From Martensiomyces pterosporus (lineage: Eukaryota; Kickxellomycota; Kickxellomycetes; Kickxellales; Kickxellaceae), in the NCBI GenBank assembly GCA_025201845.1, contig MU603968.1, positions 80,723-132,414 on the forward strand: 51,692 nt of DNA. Reading direction: 5' to 3'. Position numbers and translations under genes: made by a program. Under the pieces are notes generated by a model that was not told where the DNA came from, searched no databases, and was given only the letters and a program-made list of their open reading frames with translations. Each line of letters begins with the position of its first letter. Positions within the stretch are counted from its first letter, which is position 1. This document shows, in pieces, positions 43,740-51,692 of this stretch.

Positions 43740-44636
43740 CTACCTACGTCTGGAAAGCTGGCTTTCGGGTAGTTCGTTGTAGCTTGGCGGCGCCAGTTCA
43801 GGGTCATCTTCGGTGTGGTCAATCATATCGCCAATGCTTTGACGCTGCACTTGCGAAGCTCTGGCGTTGAAGGTGTGTCTGTCGGCATTCGGCGGTTTGG
43901 CAGCAGGCGCTTCTCCTGCACCGCCGATTTCTTGAATTGCTTGCAGGTTCTCGGTGTCGTATACCACAGTGTTTCGGCGATTGTCGCGCTTTCTTGATTT
44001 GACAAGCAGGTAGATGACGGCGGCAACCAGTAAAGATCCTAGCGGGATAGCAACACCCATTGCTATCTTTGTGGATGTTGGAAGGCCGTTAGATAGCGCG
44101 CCTGCATTGCTTTGGGGTGACCCTCCAGCGGGCGTGCTGGAGCTGAACCCACGTGTTGTCGTTGCTGGTGGTAACGGTAGTGTTGGTGATGTCGGTGGAA
44201 CTGACATCGATGTGTGGCTGGGAGATGACGAAGTGGGTGAATATGCTGTGCTTGAGCTCGACAAGACCCGCGACAACACGGATGATGACGTCTGGGAAGA
44301 AGTTTTGCTGCTGGATGTGCTAGATATGCTAGATATGCTAGATATACTGGCTGTTCTAGTGGATGATGTTCGTGTTGGTGCTGGTGCTGGTGTTGACAGT
44401 CTAGTGCTCGTGGCGGAATTCGGAGCTCCAATCTGGGAACCACCATGGCTTGTGCTCGGGATAATATCAGGACCAAGCATCGTACTGACGGTGAAAACTG
44501 AACCAGACGCAGATGTTATAAACACTTGCAGCTGGCGAGGTTCCAACCTGTTGCCATTATCTGTGCCATGTGCGGCAGCATAGATACTTGCAAGGGCAAG
44601 TAAGACAGTGTATAAGAGATAAACTGCAGCCCTCAT
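43740..44636 (-). CDS. Ser/Thr-rich single-pass membrane protein with IGGA/PPxY tail (receptor 1)
   Basis: 298 residues from ATG 44636 (MRAAVYLL); an upstream extension lacks a credible ATG. A signal peptide (1-23) is followed by a Ser/Thr/Pro-rich outer domain (about 40-185), likely heavily O-glycosylated like fungal wall-stress sensors. One membrane helix spans about 191-213, preceded by GLPTSTKIAMGVAIP and followed by a basic stop-transfer. The cytoplasmic tail has VVYDT, EIGGAGE (236-242) and ELAPPSYNELPE near the C-terminus; PPSY is a canonical PPxY ligand for WW domains of Rsp5/Nedd4 ubiquitin ligases. Paralogous in helix and tail to the gene at 45508-46107. Function is unknown; sensing or endocytic cargo role is inferred. 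Confidence 0.75.
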   Translation of the reverse strand: MRAAVYLLYTVLLALASIYAAAHGTDNGNRLEPRQLQVFITSASGSVFTVSTMLGPDIIPSTSHGGSQIGAPNSATSTRLSTPAPAPTRTSSTRTASISSISSISSTSSSKTSSQTSSSVLSRVLSSSSTAYSPTSSSPSHTSMSVPPTSPTLPLPPATTTRGFSSSTPAGGSPQSNAGALSNGLPTSTKIAMGVAIPLGSLLVAAVIYLLVKSRKRDNRRNTVVYDTENLQAIQEIGGAGEAPAAKPPNADRHTFNARASQVQRQSIGDMIDHTEDDPELAPPSYNELPESQLSRRR

Positions 44637-45507
44637 TGTAGGAGAATAGCTAAGCACAAGACAAACGGAGTGGCAGACATAAAGAGAGCTAGAGGGCGCA
44701 ATTTTCGGAAATCTTGTCTCGTCTTGGAGGAGGAAAGCCATGAGCTTTTAATAGGAGAGCGGCACTTGGGAGTACCACAAGCAGCTTGACATCTTCCTTA
44801 CAAGCCCAGATTCGCTGCTTCTAAAAATGGAGCTCGCATCGGCGCACCATGGAAGACACCCTTGCGCAATCAAATTCCCTTGCACTTGCCCTTATCCACG
44901 CCTTATTTTAAGAATACATGCTGGGAGTACGGGGCCATGCAGAGACAACCACAGGCATTCCATATAAATGCAGCAATTGGCGAGCTTCATTCGACACAAA
45001 CTGCTGGCATCTTTTGACAACCTTTCGCTTGCCAGCACTCTCCCATCTCACACGTGTCCTAAGATGTTTGAAAAATTGTCTTTGAGCAACCTGACGCCTT
45101 AAAATGAACCTCAAGCAAGCTTTATGCACAGGAAAATGGGCTACTGCCGCCAGATACTCAAATGCATTGTGAGAGTTACCTTATTTGTGCTTGGGCATTC
45201 ACTTTGTTATTTATTCACTGGATGTATGCTCTGGGCAACAGGGCTATTCTGGAAACCACTTCCATCAAAGGTAGTGGAGACAGCACACAGACTACCAGTC
45301 TACTGAAGCTGCCAGCAACTGTTGACGGCGTCTGGCTTTCCAAAGCGCCACCCCCGCCCATTTACACCCCAGTGCGCCTTAGGGCAGCACCTTGTTTGAG
45401 AAAGCAAGGTTCTCGCAAATATGTCGTGAAATATTAGTATATGCAAAGAAAACATGGTGCTACCTGTATAACCTCGGGAATGCGGCTGATGAGCATTATT
45501 GCACTTG
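44637..45507. other. Spacer between membrane genes 1 and 2
   Basis: 871 bases with the promoter of gene 1 (a TATTAAAAG on the minus strand at 44744-44752) and the 3' UTR of gene 2. A 73-codon minus frame at 44908-45129 is open but matches nothing I know. Confidence 0.5.
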
Positions 45508-46107
45508 CTATTTTGCCTCACGGACTCTGTTTTCCGGCAGCTCGCTGTACACGGGTGGCGCCAGTTCTGTAACCTCGCCTGCTCCGCCGATCATGTTTAC
45601 CGTGTTCTGCTGCTCAATGAGGCAAGTGTCGTAAACAATGCTCTCCTCGTAGTGACGCCTCCTCAGCTTTATCGCCAGGAATACGATAACAGCTATCAGC
45701 AGAACGCCAGCAGGTATGGCCACTCCCAATGCCACCTTGGTGGATGTAGGCAGCCCGCTTGAATCCGAACTGTTGGTAAGCGTTGAAAGCCCTGGTGTGC
45801 TGAGCAATCCAGGGAGGACACTGGCTGCAACGTCGCCGAGCTGCGAGAGGTATGCAAAAACGTCGTCAGTTGTAGTTGCAGCCAAAGTCGCCGTGCTAGT
45901 TGCCTTTGGTGCTGCTGAAAGTGCAGATGTTGCTTGTGTTTTCGCATACGTCTTGGACGCGTAACTTGTCGTTGTTGGCGTAGGATAGTCAATGCCACCC
46001 AGCACCGACGACAGCAGCTGCCCAATGTCCTGGCGCACCTCTAATCCACACGCAAACGACAGATGACAGCAAACAAGCGCTAGATGGAAAAACACCACAG
46101 ATTTCAT
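45508..46107 (-). CDS. Single-pass membrane protein with IGGA/PPxY tail (receptor 2)
   Basis: 199 residues from ATG 46107. Signal peptide 1-20, short Thr/Ala-rich outer region, membrane helix about 126-147, basic KLRRR stop-transfer. The boundary GLPTSTKVALGVAIP and the tail elements IVYDT, MIGGAGE (172-178) and ELAPPVYSELPE (182-191) match receptor 1 almost residue for residue, while the ectodomains do not align. PPVY (184-187) is a PPxY element. The shared tail implies common cytoplasmic partners. A TATA element lies about 95 bases upstream. No known family name can be given. Confidence 0.75.
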   Translation of the reverse strand: MKSVVFFHLALVCCHLSFACGLEVRQDIGQLLSSVLGGIDYPTPTTTSYASKTYAKTQATSALSAAPKATSTATLAATTTDDVFAYLSQLGDVAASVLPGLLSTPGLSTLTNSSDSSGLPTSTKVALGVAIPAGVLLIAVIVFLAIKLRRRHYEESIVYDTCLIEQQNTVNMIGGAGEVTELAPPVYSELPENRVREAK

Positions 46108-46601
46108 GTTGAATTAATTGTTATGCCAAAATAACAAGAAAAGCAGGCGTACAGATGTGGCAGTCGCAGTCAAAAAGCGATGGAAAGCCCGGCTTCAGGG
46201 ACTTTTATATATAGCAACATATAGGCGAAGGAGAGGTCGGCGCATTGTGCCCGGGCTGTTTCGATGGCGTGCAAAGTATGTGGGGGAGGGGCCGGCCGGC
46301 CGATTTCATTGTTGATGGTTTGCATTGTTCTCCAAAACTTCGCTCCGGCAGTGCAGTCGACCACACACCTAAAAATACGCTCATGAGAAAAGCTCCGAAC
46401 ACATGGCAAAGAGAAATCAGCACTGCAAAGTGCAGCAAGCCGTTCCAGGGATCTGTCACTCCAACGGCATAATGAAAGGCGTTTGCCAGGCTGTTCAGCA
46501 TTTCTCGTATAACAAATATAGTGCTGGCTGTCGAAATAGGGCAGGATGCAAGACCACAATAAGGAATACGATACAAGGGTAAATAGAGGCACGCACGGTA
46601 T
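46108..46601. other. Spacer between membrane genes 2 and 3
   Basis: 494 bases with the gene 2 promoter and gene 3 3' UTR. Minus-strand TATATATAAAAG at 46202-46213. No other gene recognised. Confidence 0.55.
46202..46213 (-). promoter_or_regulatory. TATA box of membrane gene 2
   Basis: Minus-strand TATATATAAAAG about 95 bases upstream of ATG 46107. Confidence 0.6.
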
Positions 46602-47984
46602 CTAGCCCCGCTTCTCGTCACCCGTTCCAAGCTGCTGGGCTGGTGCTGGCTGCTGAGCCACAGCGGTGGTGTACGTAGGCAAGCCGTCGTCGGGCCGGAC
46701 CTCGAGGATTTCGTTAACGAACTGATCAGAGTGGTGCGTTGGCTGTGAGGCACCACCAATCTCATTCGCAATCATCTTCAGGTTGGCAGCTTCCTCTTCG
46801 GGGTCCCAGTCTCTCTCGCGGTTCTTCTTCTTCCACCACTTGATAAGGAAGAACAAGCCAACCATCAGGATGATAGTGCCAACAGAGATACAGACACCAA
46901 GGATGATGGTGTCCCGCTTGGACAGACCGCTAGAAGAGCTGGATGAGGAGTTGTCCGAGGAGCTCGTGTGTGTTGGTGTCTGTGCAGGACCGCTCGTTTG
47001 CGTAGATGGACTGGAGCTGCTCGAGGGTTGAGCTTGTGGAACTCCACCCTGACGAGCATAAAAGTCGCCGCTGAGATAGGTCACGTCGCTGGGCTTAGCA
47101 GATGGCGGGTTCTTCATTGCGTAGGACGCATTTTGCTGCGGGTCAGTGATGTTGTCGTATGTGTAGTAGTAGTCCGCGTGCTTCACCACGGCTTGTAAAA
47201 AAGCGAGGTAATCGGACAGCAGGATGAAATACGATCTCTGGCTGCCGAATTTGCAGAGGTCGCTGCCGTTATACACAGCCGTGTGACTGTAGAACCCGAT
47301 TTGGTAGACGTATGTCCCGAGCATAGCATACGCAACGCCGTAGGGCGTCTGGCATGTCGAGTCAGATGCGTACTGGATAGTCATGTTGCTGCACAGAAAG
47401 TCCTTGGCGTTGAAGGCATACACACTCGACGCCTGCGTGCACGTCGAGTCGCTGAACGGGTTTGACACCAGTGTTGGTGTGTTCCATGTCTGCGTGGTAA
47501 GGTCCTTCAGGCTACGCCGAGAGTAGACAATGTCGGACCAGTCTCGGCTGTCGATGGCGGTGTAGTCGTACCAGGCGATTTTCGTGCCGGCGTTGTACTG
47601 GAGGACAGCGACATTGTTAGCCAGTGTGCTCGGGTCATAGCTGGGGTGCACAGTGATGTTCTGCACGGGGTAGTGCGCTGTGGCTCCATCGTAGCCGTTA
47701 TCAATGTACACCTCGTAGTTGGCGCTCAGGTCGACTTGACCGCTCTTAAATAACAGGCAGGCGGCGCTGATCATGGAGGTCTGGCTGTCCAGCACAGCCA
47801 ACTCGCAGCTGGTCTGCTTGCCGTTGATAACAAGCAGCCCGCCCTTGATTTTTGCCAGGTCCGCTGGAGTTGCTCGGGTGGACAGCCTTTGGCTAGGAGG
47901 CGGCTGGGCTGCCACGAGACGGGCAATGCAAAGGGCAGACACAGCAAGCAGCACTGTGCCGAACCTGCTGCACATCATCATCAT
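46602..47984 (-). CDS. Membrane-anchored trypsin-like pseudoprotease with IGGA tail
   Basis: 460 residues from ATG 47984. Signal peptide about 1-26, then a chymotrypsin-fold ectodomain (about 47-275). Landmarks align with trypsin: SMISAACLLFKSG for the VSAAHC block, ITVHPSYDPSTLANNVAVL for the region of the catalytic Asp, and DSTCQTPYGVA for CQGDSGGP. The catalytic His, Asp and Ser are replaced by C76, N124 and Y215, so it cannot act as a serine protease. A Ser/Thr stalk (about 320-352), one membrane helix (359-382) and a basic KWWKKK follow. The cytoplasmic tail has NEIGGASQ (407-414) and GLPTY (434-438), echoing the two neighbouring genes. Probably a binding or sensing protein. Confidence 0.8.
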   Translation of the reverse strand: MMMMCSRFGTVLLAVSALCIARLVAAQPPPSQRLSTRATPADLAKIKGGLLVINGKQTSCELAVLDSQTSMISAACLLFKSGQVDLSANYEVYIDNGYDGATAHYPVQNITVHPSYDPSTLANNVAVLQYNAGTKIAWYDYTAIDSRDWSDIVYSRRSLKDLTTQTWNTPTLVSNPFSDSTCTQASSVYAFNAKDFLCSNMTIQYASDSTCQTPYGVAYAMLGTYVYQIGFYSHTAVYNGSDLCKFGSQRSYFILLSDYLAFLQAVVKHADYYYTYDNITDPQQNASYAMKNPPSAKPSDVTYLSGDFYARQGGVPQAQPSSSSSPSTQTSGPAQTPTHTSSSDNSSSSSSSGLSKRDTIILGVCISVGTIILMVGLFFLIKWWKKKNRERDWDPEEEAANLKMIANEIGGASQPTHHSDQFVNEILEVRPDDGLPTYTTAVAQQPAPAQQLGTGDEKRG

Positions 47985-49004: not shown

Positions 49005-51692
49005 ATGGGTCGCCGCTCCAAACCTGTCGTTGATAGTGACTATGAGCCATCGCAAGAGTCGGGCACAGGAAATTCGCCAACACAGAGGTAAGTTACATGT
49101 ACAGATTAGACAAGATATAGCCTGGCCAACATACAAGACAATCGCTAAGAAAGCCATGTTGAGAAATGCTGCCACGCTATTATCGTTTTGTAGAAGGAGC
49201 AAGAGGCGCAAAGCCTCGCATACACCCTCGAGCGGGGCCCGAAGCACTGCTTCATCATCTCGAGGTGCGGGTTCTAGCCGCCTTGCTAAAAGAGGTGCTT
49301 TGAGGTAATACAATGAGCTGCTTTGCAATGCTGAGAATACCACATGAAAGCAACCAGTGTTGTTTAATTCAGCAAGTTTCAACTGATAGCACTAATAACA
49401 CTGTTCTGGTTATTGAGGCTTGTAGGAAACCTATACAACGCAGAGGTCCTCGCACAGCTATACCCCGCAGGGTTTTGGATTATGTGCATAGCGGCGAAAC
49501 AGGCAGTCCAGAGTAGGTATTGGCGTTGATCCTTGCCAGCAACAGCCACTCGCGCCGTACCCATGTGGCAATATATTCTGATGCCCTTCTGGAAACTGCT
49601 CAAGCAAAATCTTTCGTTGATTATTGTAGGGGTGATGTCAGTGCTACCGCCACAGGTATATCTCCCAATTCGCCAGAAGAGAGCGTGGCCGCTAGTGCCA
49701 TGGATATCGATGTGGAAAGCAGGGTGGAGCCAGAGTTACCGGCATTGCAGATGCAAGAGAGGTAAGCCACTTATCCAAGTGTCGATATAGGCCACATCCT
49801 GCTTGGCACCATTGCTATGCAGCTGGTAACTTATGATGTTCATGCAATTCTTCGATATAGTGGTAGGCGTCGTCGGGAGAGACAGCCGAATCCTGACCCA
49901 CCGGTAGGTCAGAGCCTTGCCACCGTGTCTGCTCAGGAGAGAAGAAGCACTGCTGCACCGACTTCTAGTAGAGCAACAGGGGTGCAGTCAACATTCGTGA
50001 CCCCAGTGCAGAGATCCACGGTTCCAACAGATGCCCCACGTGCACTTTCACACCAGCCTTCTTTCCGATCGTCCAGCGGGTCGCCTACAAGAGTCAGCGG
50101 CAAAATGGTTGGCACAAATGCCACGTTTAGCTCTGGCATGGACGATGTATGCAAGGTTGATAAAACCCTGATTTGCAAGGGCTTTTGGGACAGCTTCAAC
50201 AAGGTCGGTCGTGTGTGTCTTCCCCGCCGGTTTGGGAAAACATATAACATGACGATTCTGCGGCTGTTCTTTAGCTCGGGACTAGACTGTGACGAATTAG
50301 ACGATATCTCAGGCAGCACACTCACAGACGATGGGGGCAGTGCTGCTACTACATCCAGAACTGCAAGAATCGAGGACGTATACCAAGAGAAGCGAAGGAT
50401 GCTCTTTGAGGAGTCGCTTTTGGAACAAGAGGAAAGCGAATTCTTCGATACCCACTTTGCACGCTACCCTGTTCTTCACATCGTCTTTGGGGTAAGTCCA
50501 CATCGCACCATGTTGTTGTCCCACCTGCAAGGTATGCGAATGCATCACTAACTAATAGCATATGCTGTTTGGAATTTTAGAGATGTGGCGGGCCATCGTT
50601 TGGAGACTTCCTAATCAGCATTTGCACCTCTATTGCAGTGGCAGCCAAGAAGCTGATCAACGAGATCGAAATGCGGGGTTTGGAGCTGAGTGTAAGAGCG
50701 GGCGAGCCATTTGAACAACTAAATGAACAGCTGCGAGTGTATCACACTGTTATGGATGGGCCAGCTGAACGACGAGACATGTACACCAGTCTTGGTAAAG
50801 AGATATTCGAGGAGCTTTCGGATTTTGTCCGCTCTCAGTTTGGCAGATACATGCTTTTCGTGGATGAGTACGACACTCCGTTCATTACCATTCAGCAGGC
50901 TGCTTGGGATGAGGACCTGAAAGAGCGTGCCCGTGCCATGCTCAAAGCACTCTACAAGTCAATGATCAAGGTAAGAACCGGCACTGATGGCGTCTTGGCA
51001 ATTGAGGCTTCTCATTTGCTCACCATGCGAATATGCTGTGATACACGACTAGCTATACCCGCTGCTGTGCATTTGCTGTTTGTTTTCGGTTCGCGATGTA
51101 GTACAACGACAATATCCTCAAGGGGCTGATAACCGGCGTGTTTGCTGTCTCGCTGGCTGTCATGGGCTCGGGTGCGAACGATATCGAGGAGTACAAGGCG
51201 ATTGAAATGCCCGAAACAGAGGATACTGATGACGAACTGACTGCTCTATGGGCATCCGAGACTATAGAATACCCGCATCGTGGTGTCAACTACTTCCTTG
51301 ACTCATTCGCATTCAACTCGCAAGAGGTGTCTGCGCTTATCGACAAAGCATGCGTTATCCGCCCCAGTCTGCGTGGCCAGAAAGACACGGTCAGTCAAGT
51401 GGTTCACGAGTGGTACAATGGCTACAGCATTGGGCAGTCGACTGGCAAATACAATCCGTGGTCGGTGATGGCGTTTTTGGGGCAAGTGGCTAAGCAGCGC
51501 AAAAAACACATTCCGGGTTCCCGTGCGAACGATAGGCTGCTGGAATTCTGGGTTGAAAGTGGGTCACATTCACTCATAGAAACTCAGGTCGACCACAACC
51601 GCAGGGGATTTTTGCAAGTTGCAAGACAGCTAATCCAAGAGTACAGGGTGCACTCTGGCACGTCGGATGCTGGTAGTCAGCAAAGAGTGCAG
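49005..51692 (+). CDS. AAA-ATPase-like protein (Pfam AAA-ATPase_like type), right end cut by window
   Basis: Exons read as 49005-49087, 49194-49304, 49426-49512, 49630-49761, 49867-50491, 50581-50970 and 51102 to the edge: 673 residues so far. All introns (89-131 bases) have GT/AG ends. The first ~225 residues are disordered, basic and Ser-rich, with KRRK as a possible nuclear signal. Then come the family motifs: VDKTLI (235-240), P-loop-type LPRRFGKT (256-263), Walker-B-type GRYMLFVDEYDTPF (434-447), GLITGVFAVS, and EWYNGYSIG...YNPWSVMAF. In such proteins a PD-(D/E)XK nuclease-like domain usually follows, here beyond the window. The family is expanded in some bacteria and early-diverging fungi; biological role is not established. 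Exon 5 acceptor could alternatively lie six bases upstream. Confidence 0.85.

What the first reader, a model, noticed from the sequence alone, without database searches (positions are those of the whole stretch)
43740..47984. Three adjacent membrane proteins with different outsides and one shared cytoplasmic tail code
Three consecutive minus-strand genes share a juxtamembrane-to-tail layout: helix, basic stop, an IGGA(G/S)(E/Q) motif 25-30 residues inside, and a terminal PPxY or LPxY element. Receptors 1 and 2 share GLPTSTK(I/V)A(M/L)GVAIP, VYDT and ELAPP(S/V)Y(N/S)ELPE, yet their ectodomains do not align; the third has a protease-like ectodomain. Conserved inside with swapped outside suggests a sensor or cargo family that recruits the same partner. 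PPxY motifs are established ligands of WW-domain ubiquitin ligases. I know no described family with the IGGA tail.
Basis: partly seen in the sequence, partly recalled or inferred. Interest (0 to 1): 0.78.

Follow-up and report, generated by a model that had tools for sequence, protein, structure and literature searches.

The report
Dead-trypsin membrane proteins sharing one tail
Three neighbouring genes of a fungus encode cell-surface proteins with related inner tails; one belongs to a large family whose outer part is a trypsin that has lost its cutting machinery, and the tails carry a likely docking site for a ubiquitin ligase.

Summary
Three single-frame minus-strand genes (g1 43743-44636, g2 45511-46107, g3 46605-47984) encode single-pass membrane proteins with (E/M)IGGA 24-30 residues after the helix and a PPxY/LPxY. 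The window is Martensiomyces pterosporus. g3 is one of at least 17 paralogs here. Its head is a chymotrypsin-fold pseudoprotease: cysteines kept, His57, Asp102 and Ser195 replaced in 15 of 15 complete heads. A second pseudo-trypsin clade, mostly Tyr/Tyr at His57/Ser195, has a related helix-GG tail without PY motif in Kickxellales. In this genome 18 of 18 S1 proteins with helix plus cytosolic tail lack an intact triad; 14 of 14 intact ones lack such a tail. g1 and g2 are headless members with a Coemansia relative. A WW-HECT ligase is encoded. Best reading: surface receptors or adhesins with dead-trypsin heads, turned over by Rsp5/NEDD4 through PY; the GG element binds another, unknown partner. 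I found the tail with two kinds of outside, not many. Function is inferred.

The parts
46605..47984 (-). g3: 460-aa type I membrane protein with pseudo-trypsin head, Ser/Thr stalk, helix and tail (class A)
   Evidence: ORF; helix; 100% identity over 99% of g3 to P0001
47175..47852 (-). g3 pseudo-trypsin (S1, chymotrypsin-fold) head, about residues 45-270
47760..47762 (-). position of catalytic His57: Ala75 in g3
47613..47615 (-). position of catalytic Asp102: Asn124 in g3
47340..47342 (-). position of catalytic Ser195: Tyr215 in g3 (GDSGG replaced by TPYGV)
46851..46907 (-). g3 transmembrane helix (core 19 residues)
   Evidence: hydropathy; model helix 356-389
46749..46763 (-). g3 EIGGA element, at the end of a predicted helix (residues 395-408, 46761-46802)
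   Evidence: block pLDDT there only 42-47
46671..46682 (-). g3 LPTY (PY motif)
45511..46107 (-). g2: 199-aa headless class C protein
   Evidence: ORF; relative P0014
45670..45726 (-). g2 transmembrane helix
45580..45594 (-). g2 MIGGA element
45547..45558 (-). g2 PPVY (PY motif)
43743..44636 (-). g1: 298-aa headless class C protein, ectodomain 43% Ser/Thr
   Evidence: ORF; composition
44001..44057 (-). g1 transmembrane helix
43917..43931 (-). g1 EIGGA element
43779..43790 (-). g1 PPSY (PY motif)

Best explanation
The three genes belong to a Kickxellales family of type I cell-surface proteins. In the headed members (g3 and its paralogs) the outer part is a trypsin fold that kept its disulfide cysteines and lost its catalysis, so it most likely serves as a ligand-binding or adhesive head on a Ser/Thr-rich stalk. 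g1 and g2 are headless members with only the stalk. The cytosolic tail has two separable elements: a short predicted helix ending in (E/D)(I/L)GG(A/S), about 23-33 residues inside, found in all three classes and probably binding a common but unknown cytosolic partner or the membrane; and, in classes A and C, a PPxY/LPxY motif that recruits a Rsp5/NEDD4-type ubiquitin ligase, which ubiquitinates tail lysines and drives endocytosis and vacuolar turnover. Shown by sequence: architecture, loss of the triad, recurrence of the tail, PY enrichment, presence of a WW-HECT ligase. Inferred: binding role of the head, Rsp5 recruitment, turnover, role of the GG element.
Against: 5 of 16 own class A tails have no PY and 11 of 16 no GG motif by the rule used, so neither element is required. 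The class B set, whose tail looks best conserved, has PY in 0 of 29 tails, so the ligase model covers only part of the family. Pairwise, the cytosolic tails of g1 and g3 are not alike beyond shuffles, and the A-C and B-C profile matches are only 42% and 27%. The headed set shares ancestry, so 18 of 18 amounts to perhaps two or three independent losses. Seven S1 genes have changed catalytic residues without a cytosolic tail, so loss of catalysis also occurs without the tail. No ligand, expression or localisation data.
Confidence: 0.55

Rival explanations
1. The tails make these proteins Rsp5/NEDD4 adaptors or activators rather than cargoes: the surface protein brings the ligase to other membrane proteins, and the head or stalk only sets location.
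For: PY motifs are kept while flanks diverge; PRRG1 binds NEDD4 through PPXY, and NEDD4 knockdown did not apparently alter PRRG1's own level (PMC11753899, passages read).
Against: Copy number and diverse heads fit surface receptors better than a few adaptors; own class A tails hold 1-8 lysines that could be targets. Not distinguishable by sequence.
Confidence: 0.2
2. They are cell-wall stress sensors of the Wsc/Mid2 type: a head or Ser/Thr stalk in the wall, a helix and a signalling tail; the PY motif only limits their lifetime.
For: Ser/Thr-rich stalk plus single helix; weak Pfam Mid2 match of g3 (E 2.3e-4, 21.4 bits, under the 23.2 cut-off); 31-55% Ser+Thr in the four stretches measured.
Against: The Mid2 match is below its cut-off and covers residues 336-381, stalk and helix only; no WSC domain among the Pfam matches listed; the head is S1.
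Confidence: 0.2
3. The short proteins g1 and g2 have no receptor role: they are by-products of tandem duplication in which the head was lost, drifting under weak constraint.
For: A class A remnant on C115 (L007:7375-7792) keeps an N-terminal piece and the stalk-helix-tail but lacks most of the head; C204 has a headless gene next to a headed one with a 37% identical helix and tail.
Against: g2 and the Coemansia protein P0014 share the cytosolic tail (z 16.6, 0 of 500 shuffles) and weakly the outside (z 4.8, 0 of 500), which drift would not keep; no S1 remains were found between the window genes.
Confidence: 0.12
4. The heads have a new catalytic site of their own (for example around the conserved YSH(T/S) segment) and are enzymes of another kind.
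For: A strongly conserved YSH(T/S) segment in the class A alignment.
Against: No constellation of conserved catalytic residues was identified; not tested further.
Confidence: 0.06

Closest known systems
S1 serine protease homologs / pseudoproteases (protein Z, insect PPAF-II type)
   Same: Chymotrypsin fold with lost triad and kept disulfides; protein Z and PPAF-II are among the structural matches; that they are inactive homologs is recalled
   Different: The known ones I recall are secreted; these are membrane-anchored with a cytosolic tail and form a fungal multigene family
Transmembrane serine proteases (TMPRSS type)
   Same: Membrane-tethered S1 domain; three class B records (P0015, P0032, P0036) are named 'Transmembrane protease serine 5'
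   Different: Here the S1 head is N-terminal of the helix, and the triad is not intact in any of the three, so the name is unlikely to be right; TMPRSS topology is recalled
PRRG1 and Sna3 as NEDD4/Rsp5 partners
   Same: Membrane proteins with cytosolic PPxY (PMC11753899 passages; PMC2171029 abstract)
   Different: No sequence relation looked for or claimed; ectodomains differ; no helix-GG element in what was read
Wsc/Mid2 cell-wall sensors
   Same: Ser/Thr-rich stalk, single helix, short tail (recalled; weak Mid2 match)
   Different: No WSC match, Mid2 score below cut-off, S1-derived head

Membership tests
S1 (chymotrypsin) fold | double beta-barrel fold | tested here: met
S1 (chymotrypsin) fold | disulfide cysteines 42-58, 168-182, 191-220 | tested here: met
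   all six cysteines in 14 of 15 own class A heads, five in the other
Active S1 peptidase | His57-Asp102-Ser195 triad | tested here: not met
   all three residues present in 0 of 15 own class A heads, 0 of 12 class A rows of other records (one lacks the His region), 0 of 27 class B rows (two lack the His and Asp regions)
Active S1 peptidase | Asp194 and Arg15-(Ile/Val)16 activation site | tested here: not met
   class A: Asp194 is Pro in 27 of 27 rows. Class B, by contrast, keeps Asp194 in 27 of 27 and Arg15 and Ile/Val16 in 24 of 27
NEDD4/Rsp5 PY ligand | cytosolic (P/L)PxY | tested here: met
   g1, g2, g3; 11 of 16 own class A; but 0 of 29 in the class B set
NEDD4/Rsp5 PY ligand | WW-HECT ligase present in the genome | tested here: met
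   C46, three WW and HECT in neighbouring frames; C2 domain not looked for
NEDD4/Rsp5 PY ligand | physical binding and ubiquitination | not testable with these tools
   needs pull-down
Mid2/Wsc sensors | Pfam Mid2 or WSC domain | tested here: not met
   Mid2 21.4 bits against cut-off 23.2 for g3; none for g1, g2; no WSC row
Mid2/Wsc sensors | function in cell-wall stress signalling | not testable with these tools
   needs a phenotype
One family A+B+C by tail | homologous cytosolic tail | tested here: inconclusive
   hhalign probability A-B 91, A-C 42, B-C 27, B with the headless L011_2158 94, A with L011_2158 21; 0 of 60 column shuffles as good in each (16 of 26 class A tails used)

The most novel reading that the evidence does not exclude
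Kickxellales fungi run a large repertoire of surface receptors built on dead trypsins that sense peptides, proteases or inhibitors outside, feeding one new cytosolic docking code (helix-GG) that couples to an undescribed partner, with the PY motif as the off switch; headless members modulate the same partner.
Probability: 0.2. Interest if true: 0.82.

Novelty: new variant of a known kind. Interest (0 to 1): 0.6.

Why it matters
Receptors of early-diverging fungi are poorly known (my own knowledge). A multigene family of membrane-tethered pseudo-trypsins, in which lost catalysis goes together with a helix and a conserved tail in at least two clades, would be a clear case of enzymes turned into receptors, and gives two short testable tail motifs. 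It also questions public records that name class B members transmembrane proteases and a gene model that fuses g3, g2 and part of g1.

Tried and rejected
Not borne out: that the tail recurs with many outsides. Own-genome searches with whole g1, g2 and g3, with three tails of relatives and with P0014 gave pseudo-trypsin heads and short Ser/Thr-rich proteins as credible tail carriers. Weaker rows (C18:212610, C153:26018, C32:67853) match at or near the helix; their frames were read. One of them, L015 on C18, does hold NIGGAY, but 91 residues after the helix, without PY, and its tail matches only itself in this genome; I take it as unrelated, which is not proved. Other weak rows (C145, C55, C10, C26, C15) were not fetched; C3:148137 was fetched (L018) and gave no candidate. 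The database search with the g1 tail gave one protein (P0014, E 1.6e-6; 143 candidates); with the class B tail 24, all with PF00089 (1471 candidates). These searches are word-based or single-sequence, capped in candidates and limited by length, and can miss remote tails.

Rejected: S1 remains between g1, g2 and g3 (tblastn of 22 proteins on the window; best hit outside the three genes E 0.016).

Rejected: the fused public model P0001 as the true gene: it skips the g2 signal peptide and reads g1 in another frame, while each of the three frames has its own start, hydrophobic N-terminus and stop. No transcript data were seen.

Limits: the AlphaFold model rests on 11 sequences, mean pLDDT 58. Background rate of the motifs was counted only on 8 other window open frames, 6325 residues: GG 2, PY 1; three of these frames have no Pfam match and may not be genes. 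Of the 33 PF00089 rows, L044 (C3) looks like another protease type with PDZ-like parts and was left out (read by eye), and the 88-aa frame on C137 was not examined. Seven S1 genes with changed catalytic residues and no cytosolic tail (L009, L040, L043 by alignment; L036, L038, L039, L041 by eye) are outside the 18 and 14. The tree (66 rows) left out L022, L036, L038, L039, L041, and P0008, P0010, P0021, P0037. The class B tail set of 29 includes the headless L011_2158 and L037, which is not in the class B clade.

Literature: the listings showed no paper on Kickxellales pseudo-trypsins; (Coemansia, serine protease, catalytic triad) found 0 papers. PMC8778642 was read in passages: it lists S01 in its set; no triads in the passages shown. 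Most subscription papers are not in that library.
Full report
What is there. The window lies in contig C40 of a 17.4 Mb assembly and belongs to Martensiomyces pterosporus: the database protein P0001 of that species is 100% identical to g3 over 99% of its length. Three intact open frames run in the same direction on the minus strand: g3 (46605-47984), g2 (45511-46107) and g1 (43743-44636). Each has a hydrophobic N-terminus, a Ser/Thr-rich outer stretch, one helix, a basic stop and a tail.

g3 is a member of a large family. A search of the own genome with g3 gave 23 matching places. Sorted out, they are 15 complete class A heads including g3, two class A genes cut by contig ends (C115, two rows; C114, one row), g1 and g2, two rows on C204 (a class B gene and its headless neighbour) and one on C77. 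The tool states that such counts are lower bounds. Class A genes lie two or more to a contig on C115, C70, C30, C37 and C114, and singly on C40 and C109. One more class A remnant lies in the C115 array (L007:7375-7792).

A second clade tells the same story. Class B (C204, C18, C184 in this genome; 24 database proteins from Coemansia, Dipsacomyces, Linderina and Kickxella) carries PF00089. His57 is Tyr in 20 and Ser195 is Tyr in 19 of 27 rows (two rows lack the His region); Asp102 is kept in 21; only the Linderina protein P0016 keeps Ser195, and it has lost the other two. A midpoint-rooted tree of 66 rows gives class A (100/100) and class B (96/98) as separate groups. Their tails are nevertheless alike by profile (91%; 16 of 26 class A tails, picked by me, against 26 of 29), with a GG motif at similar depth. 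Three class B records are named 'Transmembrane protease serine 5', which the lost triad makes doubtful.

A rule in this genome. Of the S1 proteins whose head could be read, 18 of 18 with a helix followed by a cytosolic tail (14 class A, 3 class B, and one C204 gene with Phe at His57 and Ser195, L037) lack an intact triad; of 14 with an intact triad none has such a tail (10 look secreted, 4 end in a GPI-like hydrophobic stretch) (the fourteenth, L022). Seven further S1 genes have changed catalytic residues and end without a cytosolic tail, so the rule runs one way: tail implies dead, dead does not imply tail. Shared ancestry reduces the 18 to perhaps two or three independent events.

The tail has two elements. 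The GG motif, by a fixed rule, is in 5 of 16 own class A tails (0.06 expected by shuffling), 4 of 10 class A tails of other records (0.09), 3 of 3 class C and 28 of 29 of the class B set (0.38), its first match starting 23-33 residues after the helix core. The PY motif is in 11 of 16 (0.62 expected), 9 of 10 (0.66), 3 of 3 (0.05) and 0 of 29 (1.63) of the same sets. In the 10, P0012 is a partial protein wrongly counted as having a tail, and P0002 and P0010 share one tail. So the elements are separable, and neither is universal. In the g3 model a helix (395-408) ends at the GG, at low confidence.

g1 and g2 are headless relatives. Their ectodomains are 43% and 32% Ser+Thr and do not align with each other, while g2 aligns weakly with the outside of P0014 of Coemansia sp. 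BCRC 34301 (z 4.8, 0 of 500 shuffles) and strongly with its tail. The C204 cluster repeats the arrangement: a pseudo-trypsin gene next to a short Ser/Thr-rich gene with a 37% identical helix and tail. The C115 remnant shows a class A gene with most of its head gone. Whether g1/g2 arose by head loss is inference; no S1 remains lie between the window genes, and their tails are no closer to g3 than to other class A members.

Other carriers. One more single-pass protein, L015 on C18, holds NIGGAY, but 91 residues inside, without PY, and its tail finds only itself in this genome. I do not count it, but it is the nearest thing to a third kind of outside.

Mechanism. C46 encodes three WW domains and, in the next frame, a HECT domain, so the established reader of PY motifs is present. 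By the precedents of Sna3 (PMC2171029, abstract) and PRRG1 (PMC11753899, passages), I take ligase-driven sorting or turnover as the most likely role of the PY motif. The well-conserved class B tail without PY argues that the helix-GG element does something else, probably binding a shared cytosolic partner. The heads, with cysteines kept and catalysis gone, most likely bind ligands. None of these steps is shown.

Verdict. A real receptor-like family, for which I found no description in the searches made, with an unusual origin; the reported trio is one cluster of it. It is a new variant of known kinds (pseudoproteases; PY-motif membrane proteins), not a new kind of system.

Noticed in passing
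46605-47984 and 45511-46107 (P0001): The public gene model GQ54DRAFT_333072 (702 aa) fuses g3, g2 without its signal peptide, and a piece of g1 in another frame; very likely a misannotation.
   Followed up: partly
L007:7129-7792 (C115): Class A gene remnant: an N-terminal piece and stalk-helix-tail remain, most of the head is missing.
   Followed up: partly
L011 (C204): Second headed/headless pair: pseudo-trypsin (Tyr/Tyr) next to a short Ser/Thr-rich protein with a related long tail; a third S1 gene (Phe/Phe, L037) with helix and 41-residue tail lies beside them.
   Followed up: yes
L015:2262-3962 (C18): Single-pass protein with another kind of outside and NIGGAY 91 residues after the helix; its tail matches only itself in this genome.
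   Followed up: partly
P0002 (Coemansia sp. RSA 1939): Class A relative with two pseudo-trypsin heads in tandem on one stalk (read from the sequence).
   Followed up: no
L036, L038, L039, L041 (C45, C104, C77): Further S1 genes with changed catalytic residues and a GPI-like C-terminus (read by eye).
   Followed up: no
49766-50548: Open frame with a borderline match to the predicted AAA-ATPase family PF09820 (27.7 bits, cut-off 26.1).
   Followed up: no
21559-41745: Neighbours by Pfam: coatomer beta, TOR kinase, a GH5 cellulase-type protein, ATG5.
   Followed up: no
class A heads: A strongly conserved YSH(T/S) segment with no known role.
   Followed up: no
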